DNA from: Gloeomargarita sp. SKYB120
GTDB lineage: Bacteria > Cyanobacteriota > Cyanobacteriia > Gloeomargaritales > Gloeomargaritaceae
NCBI GenBank assembly: GCA_025062155.1
Contig: JANXAM010000023.1
Location: 1 to 41,151 of the forward strand
DNA length: 41,151 bases
Direction of reading: 5' to 3'
This document shows, piece by piece, positions 1 to 36,148 of the stretch (position 1 is the first letter of the stretch; each line of letters starts with the position of its first letter). Both the position numbers and the translations under genes were made by a program. Below the pieces are notes generated by a model that made no database searches, had not been told where the DNA came from, and saw nothing but the letters and a program-made list of their open reading frames with translations.

Positions 1-738
1 GGATTGAAACCAGCCTCCGCAGGCGGGGTCGTGAACACCAGCATCGTCTCAAATTCCTTATCCCGGTATGCGGGATTGAAACGCACAAGGAAAAGCACGC
101 GATGGCCCGACAGTACCAGTCTCAAATTCCTTATCCCGGTATGCGGGATTGAAACAAGGGCATAGGGCGGGCGCTGGCAAGAGCGATAGGGTCTCAAATT
201 CCTTATCCCGGTATGCGGGATTGAAACTTTGCCAGCGCTCTTGACAATTCGACAAATTTGTGCTGTCTCAAATTCCTTATCCCGGTATGCGGGATTGAAA
301 CTTTACAATTACATGCAAAAACTTTCTCAAATTGACTGTCTCAAATTCCTTATCCCGGTATGCGGGATTGAAACATCCCGTGGAGCGCCACCACGGTTAG
401 CCTTAATGGTCTCAAATTCCTTATCCCGGTATGCGGGATTGAAACGACCAGGCCGCCACATCCCGCATGTTGGCCAAGGCGTCTCAAATTCCTTATCCCG
501 GTATGCGGGATTGAAACCTGAAATTCGCCATTTTCCGGGCAGCGATTAACCTTGTCTCAAATTCCTTATCCCGGTATGCGGGATTGAAACGTAGTGGTGC
601 ACCAGGAAGGCGAAGAGCCACACCGGCGTCTCAAATTCCTTATCCCGGTATGCGGGATTGAAACGCCGTCGTTGCCCACCCGCACTTGCCCGAAGGCATC
701 AGTCTCAAATTCCTTATCCCGGTATGCGGGATTGAAAC
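1..738 (+). CRISPR. CRISPR array, trailer end (10 complete repeats, 10 spacers)
   Basis: The window opens inside a repeat (last 10 bases at 1-10). Complete, identical 37-base repeats follow at 46-82, 119-155, 191-227, 265-301, 338-374, 409-445, 481-517, 554-590, 628-664 and 702-738. Each begins GTCTCAAATT, ends GGGATTGAAAC and carries a 6-bp inverted repeat ATCCCG/CGGGAT around the loop GTATG. The ten spacers are 34 to 37 bases long and all differ. The ATTGAAAC end is the usual 8-base 5' handle of type I and type III crRNAs, so transcription is most likely on the plus strand, with the leader and cas genes outside the window to the left. The final repeat is not degenerate. No cas gene is in the window, so the subtype cannot be assigned. 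Confidence 0.98.
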
Positions 739-769
739 ACATTGTCAGCGGTAAATTCCCCATTAAATC

Positions 770-29298: not shown

Positions 29299-31198
29299 TG
29301 TTTCCCCACAGCATTCCCATTCCGAGTGGCCCTTTGCCCCACAAGTGGGATGAATTCAAAAACCACTGTCGCCTAGTGAGTCCGGCCAATCGCCGCAAAT
29401 ACACGATTTTGGTGGTGGGCACCGGACTGGCGGGGGCTTCGGCGGCAGCTACGTTGGGCGAATTGGGGTACAACGTGGTGGTGTTTTGTTTACAAGACAC
29501 GCCCCGACGCGCCCACAGCATCGCCGCTCAGGGGGGATTAACGCTGCTAAAAACTACCAAAATGACGGGGACAGTGTCTGGCGCCTGTTCTACGACACGA
29601 TCAAGGGGGGCGATTTTCGCGCGCGGGAAGCCAACGTTTATCGCCTGGCCCAGGTGAGCACCCAGATCATTGACCACTGCGTGGCTCAAGGGGTGCCATT
29701 TGCGCGGGAGTACGGCGGGTTGCTAGCGAACCGGTCGTTTGGGGGCACTCAGGTGTCTCGCACGTTCTATGCGCGGGGGCAAACAGGTCAGCAGTTGCTC
29801 TTGGGGGCTTACGGAGCGTTGCTGCGCCAGGTTCATCGGGGCACGGTGACGCTCTTGCCGCGCCGGGAAATGATGGATTTGGTGCTCATCGGCGGCCAAG
29901 CGCGGGGCCTCATCGTGCGCAATCTGGTGACGGGGGAACTGGAGCGCTACGCGGGCCATGCGGTGGTGCTAGCTACCGGCGGCTATGGGAACATCTACTA
30001 CCTGTCCACCAACGCCAAGAGTGCCAACGCGTCGGCGGTCTGGCGCTGTCACAAGCGGGGAGCGTACCTGGCCAATCCCAGTTTCGTGCAAATTCACCCC
30101 ACCTGTATTCCAGCGACGGGGGAAGGCCAATCCAAGCTCACGCTGATGAGTGAAAGCCTGCGCAACGACGGGCGCATCTGGGTGCCGAAAATTCCTGGCG
30201 ACCCTCGCCCGCCCCACGCGATTCCCCCCGAAGAACGGGATTACTTTTTGGAGCGGCTCTACCCCCGCTACGGCAACCTGGTGCCACGGGATATTGGGTC
30301 GCGGGCCATCAAGCGTATCTGCGATGCAGGCTACGGCATTGGACGTTCGGTGTACTTAGATTTTCAGGACAAGTTGGCGCACAATCGCGCAGAAATTGAG
30401 CGCAAGTACGGCAATGTCTTTACCATGTACCAACGCATCACGGGCGAGAATCCCTACGAAACGCCCATGCGCATCTATCCAGCGGTGCATTATGTGATGG
30501 GGGGTCTGTGGGTGGACTATGGCTTGATGAGTACGATTCCAGGGTTGTTTGTGCTGGGAGAAGCCAATTTTTCGGACCACGGCGCCAACCGGTTGGGGGC
30601 CAGCGCGTTGATGCAAGGGTTGGCCGATGGGTATTTCATCTTGCCCTATACGCTGGGGCATTTCTTGGCTGGTTTCAAGCCCGACCCCCTGACCACCGAC
30701 ACTCCCGAATTTGTCCAGGCGCACCAGCAAGTGCGAGAGCGGCTGGAAGCGCTGCTGGCTATCCAGGGCAACACGACTGCCATGACGTTGCACCGGGAAT
30801 TGGGGCTGCTGCTGTGGGACCAGGTGGGGATGAGTCGTTCAGCCCAAGGGTTAAAGACGGCGCTGGAGAAAATCCGGGACCTGCGCAAGCGTTTCTGGGA
30901 GGAGGTGCGGGTGCCAGGGACGCTCACGGGCTGGAACCAAGCGCTGGAGTACGCAGGACGTGTGGCCGATTACTTAGAACTGGCGGAAGTGATGGTGTGG
31001 GATGCCCTGTTGCGGGAAGAATCCTGCGGGGCGCATTTTCGGGAGGAGTACCAGACGCCTGACGGCGAGCCACTGCGGGACGATGAACGCTTTTGCCATG
31101 TGGCGTTGTGGGAGTGGCGCGATGGCGAAACACCCGTGCGTCATGTGGAACCCTTGCAGTTTGAAGCCGTTCGGCCCAGCGTGCGAGATTATCGCTAG
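29295..31198 (+). pseudogene. sdhA: Succinate dehydrogenase flavoprotein subunit, frameshifted at a G run
   Basis: Translation from the ATG at 29295 gives [20 protein letters not shown] (FAD site) through the FAD-linked HSIAAQGG, then leaves frame at the six-G run 29531-29536. The sister frame continues [20 protein letters not shown] to the stop at 31198. Adding one base at the run gives a 634-residue protein of normal length for this SdhA type. It would have intact [16 protein letters not shown], the catalytic [10 protein letters not shown] and RDIGSRAI region, and the flavin-binding [20 protein letters not shown]. Apart from the single shift the gene looks undamaged. It may be a recent mutation, a base-calling slip in the G run, or phase variation or slippage. 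Confidence 0.88.
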
Positions 31199-31203
31199 TT
31201 TTC

Positions 31204-31212
31204 TGATACAAT
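31204..31212 (+). promoter_or_regulatory. Candidate extended -10 promoter element of leuB
   Basis: TGATACAAT, read as TGN plus TACAAT, lies 27 bases before the leuB ATG and directly after the sdhA stop. No clear -35 hexamer is present at the expected distance inside the end of sdhA, which fits an extended -10 promoter. GGGAGGGGG before the ATG can act as the ribosome-binding site. Confidence 0.4.
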
Positions 31213-31239
31213 CCCTGTGCCGACGTTGCGGGAGGGGGC

Positions 31240-32328
31240 ATGACCCGTCGTAGCTATCAAATCGCTGTGTTGCCAGGGGATGGCATTGGGCCAGAAATCA
31301 TGGCTGTGACCTTGACGGTTTTGGAGAAATTGGGGCAAAAGTTTGGCATTGATTTTGTGTTTCAAGAGGCTTTAATTGGTGGTGCAGCGATTGACCAGAT
31401 GGGCCAGCCCTTGCCTCCCGAAACCCTGGAATTATGCCGCTCCAGCGATGGGGTTTTACTGGGTGCCGTGGGGGGACCCCAATGGGACGAATTGCCCAGC
31501 CATTTGCGCCCAGAACAGGCGTTGTTGGGGCTGCGCTCGGGATTGGGGTTATTTGCTAATTTACGTCCGGCCAAGGTGTTTCCGGAACTGGTGAATGCTT
31601 CCCCTTTGAAGCCAGAAATTGTCAGCGGCGTGGATATTCTGGTGGTGCGGGAATTGACGGGGGGTGTTTATTTCGGACAACCTAAGGGCATTTTTACCAC
31701 CGAAACCGGCGAGCAGCGAGGTGTGAATACGATGGCCTACCGGGCGAGTGAAATTGACCGGATTGGGCGGGTAGCCTTTGCCGCAGCGCAAAAACGCCGG
31801 AAACAACTTTGCTCTGTAGATAAAGCCAACGTTTTAGAAGTCTCCCAACTGTGGCGGCAACGAATGAATTTACTTGCCCAAGCCTATCCAGACGTGACTC
31901 TCACCCATTTATATGTGGACAACGCAGCGATGCAGTTGATTCGCTGGCCTAAGCAGTTTGACGTCATTGTGACCGAAAACTTGTTTGGCGATATTTTGTC
32001 TGACGAAGCAGCAATGTTGACTGGCAGCATCGGGATGTTGCCGTCAGCCAGTTTGGGTGAAAGCGGGCCAGGCGTCTTTGAACCTGTGCACGGGAGCGCC
32101 CCAGACATTGCCGGTAAAGACATTGCCAATCCCCTGGCACAAATTCTGAGCGCTGCGATGCTCCTGCGTTACGGATTAAACGAGCCGGAGGCCGCCGATG
32201 CCCTGGAAACTGCCGTGTCCTGCGTTCTGCAGCAGGGGTATCGCACCAGCGACATCTATACGGAAGGCACCCAGCGCGTCGGGTGTCGAGCCATGGGCGA
32301 GCAGGTTGCCGCCGCACTTTCCGTATAA
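31240..32328 (+). CDS. leuB: 3-isopropylmalate dehydrogenase
   Basis: It oxidatively decarboxylates 3-isopropylmalate in leucine synthesis. The 362-residue enzyme has the N-terminal [20 protein letters not shown] and the substrate-binding arginines in [15 protein letters not shown]. The catalytic Tyr lies in [13 protein letters not shown], the Lys in [15 protein letters not shown], the metal Asp in [17 protein letters not shown], and the NAD-binding loop in [17 protein letters not shown]. The ATG at 31240 has a strong purine-rich ribosome-binding site. It stands alone after sdhA, with the rest of the leucine pathway elsewhere. Confidence 0.97.
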
Positions 32329-32420
32329 CCTGCCAAGATTTTACAAAGGTTTAACCCCTTCTTAGCCTGAAAAGGGCTGGGGCAGCTAAACTGGAGGTAC
32401 TCCGCGCCTGAGGTTGGCCT

Positions 32421-32648
32421 ATGTCTCCAGACACGACGGAACCGCCGGTTTTATTGGAGCCAGAAGCCCTGAAGGCTGCCCGCAGCGTTTATCGAGACTA
32501 CCAAGCTCGCCGCAGCTATAGACCCCTGGTGGGCGTGGCCGTTAACTGCGATACCTATCACACGACGCTGATTTTTTCTCGGAAACCGGTGCTCTTACCG
32601 TGTGAGTTTTTTGTGCCAGGACAGTTGTTGGGTGGAGAGGCAAGGTGA
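32421..32648 (+). CDS. Possible small or truncated protein, unknown
   Basis: This is a 75-codon frame with plausible codon use, beginning MSPDTTEPPVLLEPEALKAA with a helix-like stretch (ARSVYRDYQARRSYRPLVG) and two strand-like stretches after it. I do not recognise it. Its last 91 bases overlap the PD-(D/E)XK-like gene on the other strand, and its stop falls exactly where that protein's recognisable part ends. It may therefore be the broken 5' part of a longer gene cut by the arrival of the nuclease-like gene. Confidence 0.4.
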   Translation: MSPDTTEPPVLLEPEALKAARSVYRDYQARRSYRPLVGVAVNCDTYHTTLIFSRKPVLLPCEFFVPGQLLGGEAR

Positions 32649-33244
32649 ATTTCCTCACACTCCCGAAGGATGTAATTCAATCCCCCAAGTACGGTGGCCA
32701 TGTCGCTAAGCGCGTATAAAGAAGTTTCATAAACGGTGTTGTGGGTAGTGAGTCTGTAATACTTCCATCCTTCGCCGTTGGTTACCACCCCAAAAATATC
32801 AAAATCTTTGTTTGCCTGCCAGTTTTGCCATTGGCACACATGCATTTCTGTAAGACACTGGGCTAAACCCTGCAAGAAGTCATCCCGCTTCGCTTCCACG
32901 ACACAAACCATGGGGGTATCCAGATAGGCCTTATCTTCGGCAACGAGGTAGTCTACGACCCCTTGAAATTCGTTGCTTTCTAGGTTGACCCCCTTCCATA
33001 TCTTGAGCTTGGGAAATTCGGCAATGACTTCCAGCAAGATGGCATCAATGATTAATTTCCTGCTCTCTTCTGAGCTTTGGAGGTCAAAACGCTGCAATCG
33101 CTCGAAGTGCTGCTGCAAGAACTGGCTGGGGGACTTCGGAACGATGGGCAATTCCCAGGGTTGCAGGTGGGTAATGCCAAGACGCCGAAAGACCTCAGTG
33201 TAGGTGACGGTGGAAAAACTTTTTTTCTTGGATTTCAGCGTCAT
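32558..33244 (-). CDS. PD-(D/E)XK nuclease-like protein of unknown role
   Basis: The 228-residue product has a central motif GVVDYLVAEDKAYLDTPMVC followed by VVEAKRDD. This is the Asp ... Glu-X-Lys layout of PD-(D/E)XK nucleases, and is reminiscent of the N-terminal domain of type I restriction HsdR subunits. GLAQCLTEMHV is the helix commonly following. The C-terminal 29 residues (from HLASPPNNC) look non-conserved and are read from the complement of the small plus-strand ORF. There is no methylase or helicase next to it. Base composition is lower in GC than the flanks (32761-32820 has 27 G/C of 60). It starts 61 bases beyond the 3' end of tRNA-Phe, a common integration spot. Confidence 0.7.
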   Translation of the reverse strand: MTLKSKKKSFSTVTYTEVFRRLGITHLQPWELPIVPKSPSQFLQQHFERLQRFDLQSSEESRKLIIDAILLEVIAEFPKLKIWKGVNLESNEFQGVVDYLVAEDKAYLDTPMVCVVEAKRDDFLQGLAQCLTEMHVCQWQNWQANKDFDIFGVVTNGEGWKYYRLTTHNTVYETSLYALSDMATVLGGLNYILRECEEIHLASPPNNCPGTKNSHGKSTGFREKISVV

Positions 33245-33305
33245 GGTGTACGGGTAACTGCAATAGCGCTTCCCCTAGTGTAGGAAACCCGCAAACACCA
33301 CTTAG

Positions 33306-33378
33306 TGCCAGGAGCCAGACTTGAACTGGCGACACGGGGATTTTCAGTCCCCTGCTCTACCAACTGAGCTATCCCGGC
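33306..33378 (-). tRNA. tRNA-Phe (anticodon GAA)
   Basis: The 73-base minus-strand gene begins GCCGGGATAGCTCAG and ends TCCTGGCA. The acceptor stem GCCGGGA/TCCTGGC pairs with one G-U, and the discriminator is A. The D arm is AGCTCAGTTGGTAGAGC. The anticodon arm GGGGACTGAAAATCCCC holds GAA. The T arm contains GTTCAAGTC. The CCA is not encoded. It is divergent from ispH. Confidence 0.98.
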
Positions 33379-33455
33379 AGGCGATAAACCATTATAACCT
33401 ACCCCAAAGGGGGTCAACTCCATTATCATGCAGAGTGTAGTCATTCCCTAAACCC

Positions 33456-34697
33456 ATGGACCCCCGCACCCTCCGGCAAACGTTGCGTGATTCCGACCGT
33501 TACTTCCGCATGGGCTTCGGGCGAGAAGCGGAGGTTGAACCAGTTTTGCAAAAGGAGTACCAAAGCGCCCTGATCCAGCGCATCCGCAGCCAGGGCAACA
33601 CCCTGACCCAAGGAGACGTGACCATTCGCTTGGCGAGCGCCTTTGGGTTTTGCTGGGGGGTGGAACGAGCGATTGCCATGGCCTACGAAACCCGCCGCCA
33701 GTTTCCGGACGCCCGCATTTGGATCACTAACGAAATCATCCATAACCCGTCAGTGAACGAAAACCTGCGCCAGATGCAGATAGAATTTGTGCCGGTCGGC
33801 AAAGACGGCAAAAAAGATTTCAGCCCGGTAGAGCGGGGTTCTGTTGTGATTCTGCCGGCGTTTGGGGCCAGTGTTCAGGAAATGGAACTGCTTTATCAAA
33901 AAGAATGCATTATCGTAGATACGACGTGCCCCTGGGTGTCCAAGGTCTGGAATCGCGTGGGCAAGCACCGCAAGGGGGGCTACACCTCGATTATTCATGG
34001 CAAGTATCAGCACGAGGAAACGATTGCCACCAGTTCCCATGCGGAGCGATATTTGGTTGTGTTAAACCTGGAGGAGGCCCGCTATGTGGCCAATTACATC
34101 CTGCACGGGGGCAATAAAGAAGAATTCCTAGAAAAATTCCGCAATGCCTGCTCCCCTGGCTTTGACCCGGACAAGCACCTAGAGCGCATCGGCATTGCCA
34201 ACCAAACCACCATGCTCAAGGGGGAAACGGAGGCGATTGGCAAATTATTTGAACACACGATGTTGCAAAAGTATGGGCCAGTGAATTTGCATGAGCATTT
34301 CCTAAGTTTTAATACAATTTGTGATGCCACTCAGGAACGGCAAGATGCCATGTTTGAGCTGGTGAAACAGCCGTTGGATTTGATAGTGGTTATCGGCGGG
34401 TTTAATTCGTCGAATACAACCCATTTGCAAGAAATTGCCATTGAGCATGGGATTCCTTCCTACCACATTGACAGCGCCGACCGGATTGGGCCAGGCAACC
34501 GCGTGCAGCACAAACCTCTCGGTCCGGATTTGCATCGCCTAGAGGTGACCGAACCCTGGTTGCCCGAGGGACCCATTACCGTGGGCATTACCTCGGGAGC
34601 GTCCACGCCTGATAAGGTGGTGGCGGATGTGATTGAAAAAATCTTTGCCCTCAAGGGGGTAAGCGCCAACCCTGTTGCTGAAGCTGTTCCTGCTTAG
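33456..34697 (+). CDS. ispH: 4-hydroxy-3-methylbut-2-enyl diphosphate reductase
   Basis: It is the last enzyme of the plastid-type MEP isoprenoid pathway, with a 4Fe-4S cluster. The 413-residue length is the long cyanobacterial/plant form. The three cluster cysteines are in [33 protein letters not shown] and [13 protein letters not shown]. Substrate-binding residues are in [23 protein letters not shown] and [13 protein letters not shown]. The ATG at 33456 is clear. The 3' end overlaps purE by 47 bases on the other strand. Confidence 0.97.
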
Positions 34698-35154
34698 CAA
34701 GGACCTGCTGGCTCAAAGCTTGCCGATAGTCCTGGACCCGGCGTAGGAGTGCAGGGTCGTGACTGGCGAGGATTTGCACAGCAAGCAACCCAGCGTTGGT
34801 GCCATTGCCAATGGCGACGGTGGCGACAGGAATCCCCTTGGGCATTTGCACGATAGAGTACAGAGCATCCAACCCCTGCAGATGCGCGGTGGGAATCGGC
34901 ACGCCAATCACCGGTAAGGGGGTCAAGGCCGCGACCATGCCAGGTAAATGGGCGGCTCCGCCAGCGCCAGCAATAATCACCCGCAAGCCCCGCTCATGGG
35001 CCGATTCGGCGTAAGTGACCATGCGGTGGGGGGTGCGATGGGCCGAGACAATCGCCAGTTCGTAGGGCACGTCAAAGTCAGCGCATACCTGGGCGGCCTG
35101 CTGCATCACCGGCAAATCCGAATCGCTGCCCATAATGATCCCAACCTGTGGCAC
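34651..35154 (-). CDS. purE: N5-carboxyaminoimidazole ribonucleotide mutase PurE
   Basis: It catalyses the carboxylate shift in purine synthesis. The motifs are [53 protein letters not shown] and [19 protein letters not shown], all diagnostic. Two starts are possible. The GTG at 35154 has GAGG six bases upstream and gives the usual length of 167 residues. The ATG at 35199 would add 15 non-conserved residues and would overlap the start of the divergent DUF4359 gene at the same CATG. I prefer the GTG. A still longer open frame to 35298 is unlikely. Confidence 0.93.
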
Positions 35155-35197
35155 TTGGTTCCTCAACGCAGCGTCTTCATCATACTGGATTGGTAGC

Positions 35198-35605
35198 ATG
35201 GGTCTGACGGGCGTGCAGGGAAATCCAGCGGTGGTCAAGGTCGGTTGGGGCGTATTAGCAACTGTGGGACTTGCCGCAGTGGGGTTGGCGGTCACCAATC
35301 CGTCGGAGCAACAGTTTCTGGAATACGCCTACAACACGCTGCGACAAGAACTGTGCCCCCGTTTGCCGGAAATGCTCAAGGAAGCCAGGCAGGAAGACAA
35401 ACTGCTGCAATTTTTCACGCCTTACTTGCAGCAATCCTGTAGCGAGCTGCTGTTAGCTCTCAAGGAGCCGACCAAGGAATTTCTCCGCCGCAATACGAAA
35501 GTACAAAATTACCTGGTGTTTAGCATCTATACGACGGATTTGTTTGGCACTCGTTATCGCACCCTGGGCGTTGCTCGCCAGTTGATCACCATCCCACCGC
35601 AGTAG
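35198..35605 (+). CDS. DUF4359 family protein
   Basis: This is a 135-residue cyanobacterial protein with an N-terminal hydrophobic helix (about 14-33, [20 protein letters not shown]) and then the family's [21 protein letters not shown], and the C-terminal [20 protein letters not shown] and RQLITIPP. It is probably membrane-anchored or exported, with the soluble part outside the cytoplasm. Function is unknown. The ATG at 35198 is the first good start. It is followed by the TIGR02652 gene after 39 bases. Confidence 0.85.
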
Positions 35606-35644
35606 CCCGCTACAATGGCAGTAAAGGCGAGAGAATGAGTACCG

Positions 35645-36148
35645 GTGGTGGCACCCAGTTGGCAATATCCCATCTTTGGCCCGGAGATTCCCTGCCCCCA
35701 TTGCCGGCAGATGATTCCGGCGTTGACGTTGACGGATACCTATTTGTGTCCGCGTCACGGGGCGTTTGAAGCCAACCCAGAGACGGGGGAACTGGTGCAT
35801 TTGCAATCGGGACGACGCTGGCGCCAGTGGCAACAACAGTGGTACCGGCAACACACCCACCCGGACGGCATTCGCTTTGAAATTCACGAAGCCCTGGACC
35901 AGCTCTACAGCCAGGGGTACCGGGCGACGAAAGTGACGATTGCCCAGCGCTATCAGGAGTTAATGACGGGATACCTAGAAAAAACCACTCGCCCAGGGGA
36001 AGATGGCTGTCACTATCGCCTGTACGGGTTGCCAGTGGTCTTTAGTCCTCACCCCAGCGAAGACCCCTGCTGGGAAGTGATTAACTTTGTCCTAGACAAG
36101 GAACCAGGGACGCCGGTGCGGTATCCCTACCTGCGGTTGTTTGATTAA
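35645..36148 (+). CDS. TIGR02652 family conserved cyanobacterial protein (zinc-ribbon-like)
   Basis: The 167-residue product begins with [20 protein letters not shown] and [20 protein letters not shown], a CPHC...CPRH arrangement that suggests zinc binding. [20 protein letters not shown] and [20 protein letters not shown] follow. These blocks match the cyanobacterium-specific TIGR02652 family as I remember it. Function is unknown. The start is GTG (35645, or 35648). The nearby ATG at 35635 is out of frame. The TAA stop shares TTAA with the stop of the convergent thrC. Confidence 0.88.

What the first reader, a model, noticed from the sequence alone, without database searches (positions are those of the whole stretch)
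32421..33378. Nuclease-like gene inserted beside tRNA-Phe, possibly truncating another gene
A PD-(D/E)XK-like gene in AT-richer DNA starts 61 bases beyond the tRNA-Phe 3' end. Its recognisable part ends exactly at the stop of a plus-strand 75-codon ORF, and its last 29 residues are just the complement of that ORF. This suggests a junction near 32648 and a foreign gene integrated at a tRNA. A solitary nuclease-like gene could be a defence remnant or a stand-alone factor.
Basis: partly seen in the sequence, partly recalled or inferred. Interest (0 to 1): 0.5.

Follow-up and report, generated by a model that had tools for sequence, protein, structure and literature searches.

The report
Lone nuclease gene beside a tRNA
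A stray DNA-cutting-enzyme gene of a cyanobacterial family sits in the gap next to a tRNA gene and runs a little into the back of its neighbour without damaging it; this is a fairly ordinary single-gene arrival, with some unusual relatives.

Summary
The sequence observations hold. A PD-(D/E)XK-type gene (33244..32558, minus) starts 61 bases past tRNA-Phe, its family-conserved part ends at about residue 199, on the stop codon of the plus-strand 75-codon ORF, and its last 29 residues are antisense to that ORF. The 'truncated gene' reading is wrong: ORF75 is a complete small protein, 75 codons in four of five congeners that show it and found in 91 of 116 cyanobacterial genomes searched. Congener G002 keeps leuB-ORF75-tRNA-Phe-ispH with 211 unrelated bases instead of the nuclease; none of the six other genus genomes holds this subfamily. 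No att duplication, integrase or terminal repeat marks the window copy. The nuclease belongs to a cyanobacterial family (PADLOC PD_DExK); catalytic positions are intact and the model is confident (pLDDT 92) except for the last 25 or so residues. Of 128 distinct family copies, 15 lie between a DUF1156 methyltransferase and a PLD helicase (a BREX-related arrangement); 109 show neither. Three of 80 lie within 70 nt of a tRNA 3' end, versus 3 of 988 other ORFs. Best reading: a laterally gained orphan of a restriction-type nuclease family. Side result: the best fold match is the mitoribosomal proteins mL37/mL65.

The parts
32648..33244 (-). Nuclease-like gene, family-conserved part (residues 1-199), PD-(D/E)XK core E59, D98, E117-x-K119, Q129
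   Evidence: PADLOC PD_DExK E=1.3e-39; invariant columns in A1/A2; AF2 pLDDT mostly 92-98 in the core
32558..32647 (-). Read-through tail of the nuclease ORF (residues 200-228 and stop), antisense to ORF75, not found in homologues, low-confidence and without secondary structure from residue 203
32421..32648 (+). ORF75: complete conserved small cyanobacterial protein of unknown function, not truncated
   Evidence: 75 codons also in G001-G004, 81 in G005; 91 of 116 genomes
33245..33304 (-). 60-base spacer between tRNA-Phe 3' end and the nuclease start; no sigma-70-like promoter found; read-through from the tRNA promoter is inferred
33305..33378 (-). tRNA-Phe (GAA), intact
   Evidence: ARAGORN; Rfam
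32649..33304 (.). Block without counterpart in congener G002, which has 211 unrelated bases here
31240..32328 (+). leuB, left flank of the locus
   Evidence: Pfam Iso_dh 1.9e-141
33456..34697 (+). ispH (LytB), right flank; tRNA-Phe and ispH are adjacent in all seven genus genomes held
   Evidence: Pfam LYTB 3.5e-77

Best explanation
A laterally gained, solitary member of a cyanobacterial family of small PD-(D/E)XK DNA nucleases (about 205 aa) sits in the spacer between ORF75 and tRNA-Phe. SHOWN: the gene is intact up to about the natural end of the family; its conserved part meets the ORF75 stop codon, so its own stop is missing and the frame runs 29 codons through the antisense of ORF75; ORF75, leuB, tRNA-Phe and ispH are intact; a congener has the same gene order without it. 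INFERRED: it cuts DNA with metal ions held by D98 and E117 and with K119 (E59 and Q129 assisting), as in HsdR and type IIG nuclease domains. In a minority of relatives the same protein is encoded between a DUF1156 adenine methyltransferase and a PLD helicase, where it would act as the (auxiliary) nuclease of a BREX-related restriction system. The window copy, beside no such genes, would be an orphan: probably expressed by read-through from tRNA-Phe, acting as a stand-alone or back-up DNase against incoming DNA, with a harmless disordered tail. How it moved is unknown; no mobile-element mark was found.
For: Family: 79 of 388 genomes of the class at E<=1e-35, own included, none of the other six genus genomes; 34 of 59, own included and G002 only through antisense ORF75. 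Single copy in G000. Conserved catalytic columns; order alpha-beta-beta-beta-alpha-beta, pLDDT 92; restriction-nuclease domains among the fold matches (BpuSI Z 12.7, DrdV 11.9, HsdR 9.5). All 50 of A2 match PADLOC PD_DExK; 14 of 50 weakly match HSDR_N, best E 6e-4. Operon context: 15 of 128 distinct copies (14 of 103 with 1.5 kb on both sides), among them the three plasmid copies of 50% identity or more; clustered on the tree (9 changes against 14.4 shuffled, 0 of 500 as low). Locus without the gene in G002. ORF75 complete.
Against: 109 of 128 copies show neither partner gene within 2.6 kb (25 of the 128 had under 1.5 kb on a side), and the non-operon state is reconstructed at the root, so defence is not the only possible role. 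GC3 is like the neighbours' and the branch is long with no close donor, so arrival need not be recent. Loss in the relatives is not excluded: G006, the closest by ispH and leuB identity, has a contig end after leuB and other DNA at tRNA-Phe. The window copy departs from 2 of 29 columns that are invariant in the other 49 of A2 and from 7 of 33 columns conserved at 90% or more. Activity was not tested. Whether this genome holds the methyltransferase and helicase elsewhere was not tested.
Confidence: 0.6

Rival explanations
1. A selfish, homing-like nuclease gene that spreads through cyanobacterial genomes by itself (as proposed for COG4636/Uma2) and tends to land just beyond tRNA 3' ends.
For: Patchy distribution, several copies in some genomes and some copies with stops; 3 of 80 copies lie 56-68 nt from the 3' end of tRNA-Cys, -Val, -Pro against 3 of 988 other ORFs in the same loci, Fisher p=0.007, window not counted; COG4636 precedent (PMC551604, abstract and passages); non-operon state at the root of the tree.
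Against: Counts are tiny and the test was post hoc; still only 3 among 128 distinct copies; none of 25 wider-family loci (22 distinct places) has a tRNA in its flanks of about 1.5 kb; spacers share no visible motif; operon copies cluster on the tree.
Confidence: 0.2
2. An old resident gene of the lineage that the congeners lost; the place beside tRNA-Phe is incidental.
For: GC3 like the neighbours; deep, isolated branch; more distant family members (the best at 27-35% identity) exist elsewhere in G001, G003 and G004.
Against: Absent from all six other genus genomes and G007 at subfamily level; the G002 spacer shows no trace of it; the missing stop points to a junction.
Confidence: 0.12
3. A decaying passenger: the lost stop codon marks a gene no longer under selection.
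For: Own stop lost; tail without predicted structure; copies with stops in other genomes; 9 departures of the window copy at otherwise conserved columns.
Against: 228 codons open; catalytic columns kept, and 27 of 29 columns invariant in the other 49; the tail replaces only a few residues after the family's natural end.
Confidence: 0.14
4. One reading: a foreign element integrated at the tRNA that cut ORF75 from a longer gene.
For: G007 (sister genus) has an integrase-like ORF at the 3' side of its tRNA-Phe.
Against: ORF75 is complete; no convincing duplicated tRNA end: the one partial match (11 of 12 bases) lies inside conserved ORF75 codons.
Confidence: 0.03

Closest known systems
PADLOC PDLC01472 'PD_DExK' (labelled CAS-associated)
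   Same: E=1.3e-39 over residues 58-198; all 50 members of A2 match
   Different: Only a rough scan for CRISPR-like repeats was made: of 181 sequences 4 were flagged, of which the window's own array (32 kb away) and L065/L240 (one contig) look real; flanks were 3-10 kb, so a CRISPR link of this subfamily is not seen but not excluded
BREX-related (BR) systems with DUF1156 methyltransferase and HKD/PLD helicase (PMC12839542, passages seen)
   Same: 15 of 128 family copies sit between these two genes; that paper reports PD-(D/E)XK nucleases as auxiliary effectors in such loci
   Different: The window copy has neither partner beside it; DUF499/DUF3780 partners were not searched for
Uma2 / DUF820 / COG4636 (PMC551604, abstract and passages)
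   Same: PD-(D/E)XK fold, cyanobacterial proliferation, solitary genes; Z 7.5-7.9 to 3ot2/1wdj
   Different: No Uma2 match at E<=1; lysine in the classical E-x-K place, whereas most COG4636 members have a migrated lysine (abstract)
HsdR N-terminal and type IIG nuclease domains (HSDR_N; BpuSI, DrdV)
   Same: Core fold Z 9.5-12.7; weak HSDR_N hits in 14 of 50
   Different: Stand-alone protein; the aligned part of these rows begins at residue 33-52; no fused methylase or helicase; no HSDR_N hit for the window copy
Mitoribosomal proteins mL37 and mL65, called 'repurposed endonucleases' in PMC8998825 (passages and section 7)
   Same: Best fold matches: Z 14.8-16.5 over 194-198 residues, the whole conserved protein (chain names from memory)
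   Different: 8-12% identity; the PDCD9 HMM finds nothing in 10 cyanobacterial genomes at E<=10

Membership tests
PD-(D/E)XK superfamily | alpha-beta-beta-beta-alpha-beta core with D, E-x-K in the sheet | tested here: met
   Helix 59-74, strands 80-84, 93-103, 113-117, helix 123-143, strand 150-155; D98, E117, K119 invariant in 50 sequences. Activity not tested
PADLOC PD_DExK (PDLC01472) | Match to the HMM over most of its length | tested here: met
   Positions 3-145 of 146, E=1.3e-39
BREX-related (BR) defence system | DUF1156 methyltransferase and helicase encoded alongside | tested here: not met
   Neighbours of the gene are ORF75, leuB, tRNA-Phe, ispH; elsewhere in the genome not searched
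Uma2/COG4636 | Match to PF05685 | tested here: not met
   No Uma2 hit at E<=1
Cas4 | RecB-type core plus four-cysteine iron-sulphur site | tested here: inconclusive
   Cas4 rows Z 5.5-6.7 (4ic1 taken as Cas4 from memory); C114, C130, C137 invariant and C196 nearly so, but their distances were not measured
tRNA-targeted integrative element | Integrase gene and duplicated tRNA 3' end (att) | tested here: not met
   No integrase in the 656-base block; no convincing duplication
Homing endonuclease I-Ssp6803I | PD-(D/E)XK homing enzyme in a tRNA intron | not tested
   Described from memory; its name was only used as a search word; not compared. ARAGORN reports an ordinary tRNA-Phe gene here

The most novel reading that the evidence does not exclude
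This small cyanobacterial nuclease family is the closest living bacterial relative of the nuclease that animals turned into the mitoribosomal proteins mL37 and mL65: both match it over its whole conserved length, N-terminal part included (Z 14.8-16.5), while the restriction-enzyme domains listed match only from residue 33-52 on (Z 12.7 at most).
Probability: 0.2. Interest if true: 0.6.

Novelty: new member of a known kind. Interest (0 to 1): 0.3.

Why it matters
It corrects a plausible misreading (a cut gene beside a tRNA) and shows a clean case in which an incoming gene lost its stop at the junction and now overlaps a conserved small gene tail to tail. The family links solitary nucleases of cyanobacteria to methyltransferase-helicase defence operons, so the question whether such orphans still defend the cell can be tested. 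If the mL37/mL65 match is more than a shared fold, it would point to the source of two mitoribosomal proteins.

Tried and rejected
Truncation of ORF75: rejected. Duplicated tRNA end: the 3' part of tRNA-Phe scores 12 against 32561-32760, reached by 7 of 500 base shuffles, but the matching bases (32610-32621) are codons of ORF75 (Val-Pro-Gly), whose following codons also align with G002; rejected. G002's spacer as a decayed nuclease: no tblastn hit at E<=50. Phage origin: no relative in viral contigs or in 50,697 phage records. Small RNA in 30000-36000: only the tRNA reaches a gathering score. Promoter and terminator scans gave no more than shuffles. Folding of the tRNA-nuclease spacer RNA was somewhat stable (6 of 200 shuffles as stable) and was not followed. 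A conserved motif in the tRNA-nuclease spacers: none seen by eye in four sequences. The PDB sequence search gave three hits at E 0.14-0.66, none a nuclease. Weak PHROG hits (best E 0.014) were not followed. TGA inside ispH of congeners: only read-through beyond the natural stop in the three looked at. A model of the wider family failed (pLDDT 60, three sequences), so whether it shares the mL37 match is open; I-Ssp6803I and Cas4 were not compared in detail. That the genus is Gloeomargarita is my recall from one contig's length (3,049,282 bases) and comes from no call; genomes are therefore cited by handle.

Full report
WHAT IS THERE. The window carries leuB (31240-32328 +), ORF75 (32421-32648 +), a 228-codon minus-strand ORF (33244-32558), tRNA-Phe (33305-33378 -) and ispH (33456-34697 +). 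GC of the conserved part is 48.2% but GC3 is 0.60, like leuB (0.58), ORF75 (0.59) and ispH (0.63).

ORF75 IS NOT CUT. In congener G002 the ORF is 94.5% identical over 73 residues. From the aligned ATG it is 75 codons long in G001, G002, G003 and G004, as in the window, and 81 in G005. It matches strongly in five of the six other genus genomes; the sixth, G006, has a contig end just after leuB. In a class-wide draw 91 of 116 genomes, the window's included, have it at E<=0.001, mostly over residues 8-70. No hit in Pfam (E<=1), NCBIfam, PHROGs or PADLOC. The gene that lost something is the nuclease: homologues end with a stop at or shortly after the motif CEQNL (75 of 80 are 200-219 aa), while the window copy has CEEI followed by antisense ORF75. 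The 29-residue tail alone finds nothing at E<=1 in the 180 family loci. Some matches listed reach residues 215-226; in the six I looked at the alignment runs on past the homologue's own stop codon. The tail has no predicted structure from residue 203 (pLDDT about 60). Two rows match the tail in congeners (G002 69%, G001 71%): these are the antisense of their own ORF75.

THE LOCUS IN RELATIVES. tRNA-Phe and ispH are adjacent in all seven genus genomes held. G002 has leuB-ORF75-211 bases-tRNA-Phe-ispH, and window 32649-33304 (656 bases) has no counterpart there; a tblastn of the nuclease against that spacer gives nothing. G006, the nearest by identity (ispH 96%, leuB 98%), has other DNA at tRNA-Phe, with a 518-aa ORF with a helix-turn-helix ending 2 bases from the tRNA, and leuB on another contig. 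In G001, G003, G004 and G005 leuB-ORF75 is not beside tRNA-Phe. So the DNA past this tRNA changes from species to species. In G007 (sister genus) the tRNA-Phe is followed, about 160 bases on, by an integrase-like ORF (arm-binding domain E=1.1e-5; phage integrase E=0.0015, below Pfam's cut-off). The window copy itself shows no integrase, terminal repeat or convincing tRNA duplication. Gain in the G000 line is the simplest reading, but loss elsewhere is not excluded, and G006 cannot decide. None of the 180 family loci elsewhere holds ORF75.

THE PROTEIN. No Pfam family above cut-off and no NCBIfam family matches; PADLOC's PD_DExK does (E=1.3e-39), as it does for all 50 members of A2. Invariant in A2 are E59, D67, D98, E117, K119 and Q129 among 27 columns. 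Measured without the window, 29 columns are invariant in the other 49 and the window departs from two (F13V, A18V); of 33 columns conserved at 90% or more it departs from seven. The AlphaFold2 model is confident (mean pLDDT 92, pTM 0.85) with the PD-(D/E)XK order of elements. In the second look by VIA-align the best 16 rows are mitoribosomal chains (Z 14.8-16.5, 194-198 residues aligned; that they are mL37 and mL65 is my recall of the chain names), then BpuSI (12.7, 145 residues), DrdV (11.9, 11.8), an HsdR fragment (9.5), and Uma2 proteins at 7.5-7.9; Foldseek itself gave E=4.6e-4 at best with poor superposition (TM 0.40). A review calls mL65 and mL37 repurposed endonucleases (PMC8998825, passages and section 7); three literature searches for the pair and nucleases listed no paper whose title or abstract names this family as their relative, and I opened only two of those papers. 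No sequence support was found. A shared fold shows no function. Conserved cysteines C114, C130, C137 and C196 are unexplained.

THE FAMILY. In the genome-contig scan 112 stretches encode a relative and the best 80, which are all that was returned, bear cyanobacterial names. In whole genomes 79 of 388 of the class have it at E<=1e-35, the window's included. No match in phage records or viral contigs; 15 plasmid records, three of them with 50-54% identity. From 180 loci (80 and 100 stretches of the places, many of them the same genomes) I took 183 copies and 128 distinct ones. Fifteen lie between a DUF1156 methyltransferase upstream and a PLD helicase downstream on the same strand, two with the methyltransferase only, two with the helicase only, 109 with neither; with at least 1.5 kb on both sides the numbers are 14, 2, 2 and 85 of 103. 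The plasmid copies H1-H3 show the same order (in H2 the upstream gene is annotated only as hypothetical), in Pseudanabaena with 3 bases between and a 4-base overlap; by record length they are three of the 15, not extra cases. The label is clustered on a tree of 127 copies (9 changes, shuffled mean 14.4, 0 of 500 as low), with the non-operon state at the root. PADLOC scores these partners, in the one pair tested (L090), as HmaB/DUF1156 methylase and PLD helicase. A 2026 paper describes BREX-related systems with DUF1156 methylases and HKD-helicases and notes PD-(D/E)XK nucleases as auxiliary effectors (PMC12839542, passages). I did not see this family named there, but I read passages only.

tRNA NEIGHBOURHOOD. 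Among the 80 loci, three nucleases lie 56-68 nt from a tRNA 3' end (L067 Cys, L097 Val, both same strand; L077 Pro, 3' end to 3' end) against 3 of 988 other ORFs (Fisher p=0.007). The window is not counted. In the larger set of 128 copies it is still three, and none of 25 wider-family loci (22 distinct places) has a tRNA. This is suggestive only: ORF calling was crude, the idea came from the data, and contigs end close to two of the three.

HOW IT LIKELY WORKS. Fold and residues point to metal-dependent DNA cleavage (inferred). In operons it would be the nuclease partner of a modification-helicase system (inferred from order and tight spacing). The window copy has no partner gene beside it; with no promoter-like site seen and a tRNA 60 bases upstream on the same strand, read-through expression is likely (inferred). 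A stand-alone back-up DNase, a selfish passenger and a decaying relic remain open; I rate the first highest.

VERDICT. Observation confirmed, interpretation partly supported, truncation refuted. A new member of a known kind; interest low to moderate, with one side observation (mL37/mL65) that deserves a proper test.

Noticed in passing
window 46-739: CRISPR-like array: 10 copies of a 37-base repeat (GTCTCAAATTCC...GATTGAAAC) spaced 71-74 bases, at the left end of the window.
   Followed up: partly
window 33244..32648 (model m9f772b664943): Best fold matches of the nuclease are mitoribosomal chains (mL37/mL65 by my recall), Z 14.8-16.5 over the whole conserved protein, above the restriction enzymes listed.
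   Followed up: partly
window 32421-32648: ORF75 is an uncharacterised small protein found in 91 of 116 cyanobacterial genomes and in no family library tried.
   Followed up: partly
L144, L145, L146 (G003, G004, G005), 3' side of tRNA-Phe: Uma2-type PD-(D/E)XK genes, another nuclease family, begin about 0.2-1.6 kb from the tRNA-Phe 3' end in three congeners with otherwise unrelated flanks; G003 and G004 hold 54 and 63 Uma2 matches, G005 only 5, and the G004 copy has a stop inside. Post hoc, no control over other tRNAs.
   Followed up: partly
L142:3485-4618: Integrase-like ORF about 160 bases past tRNA-Phe in the sister genus G007.
   Followed up: partly
window residues C114, C130, C137, C196 of the nuclease: Four conserved cysteines in the subfamily; of these only C130 has a counterpart among the invariant columns of three wider-family members. 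Metal or iron-sulphur site not tested.
   Followed up: no
L065:192-2034: Three family members in tandem, 0.9 kb before a short CRISPR-like array at a contig end in a Pseudanabaena bin.
   Followed up: no
L141:3090-4646: 518-aa ORF with a C-terminal helix-turn-helix ending at tRNA-Phe in G006; further on an ORF that looks like a homocitrate synthase (by eye only).
   Followed up: no
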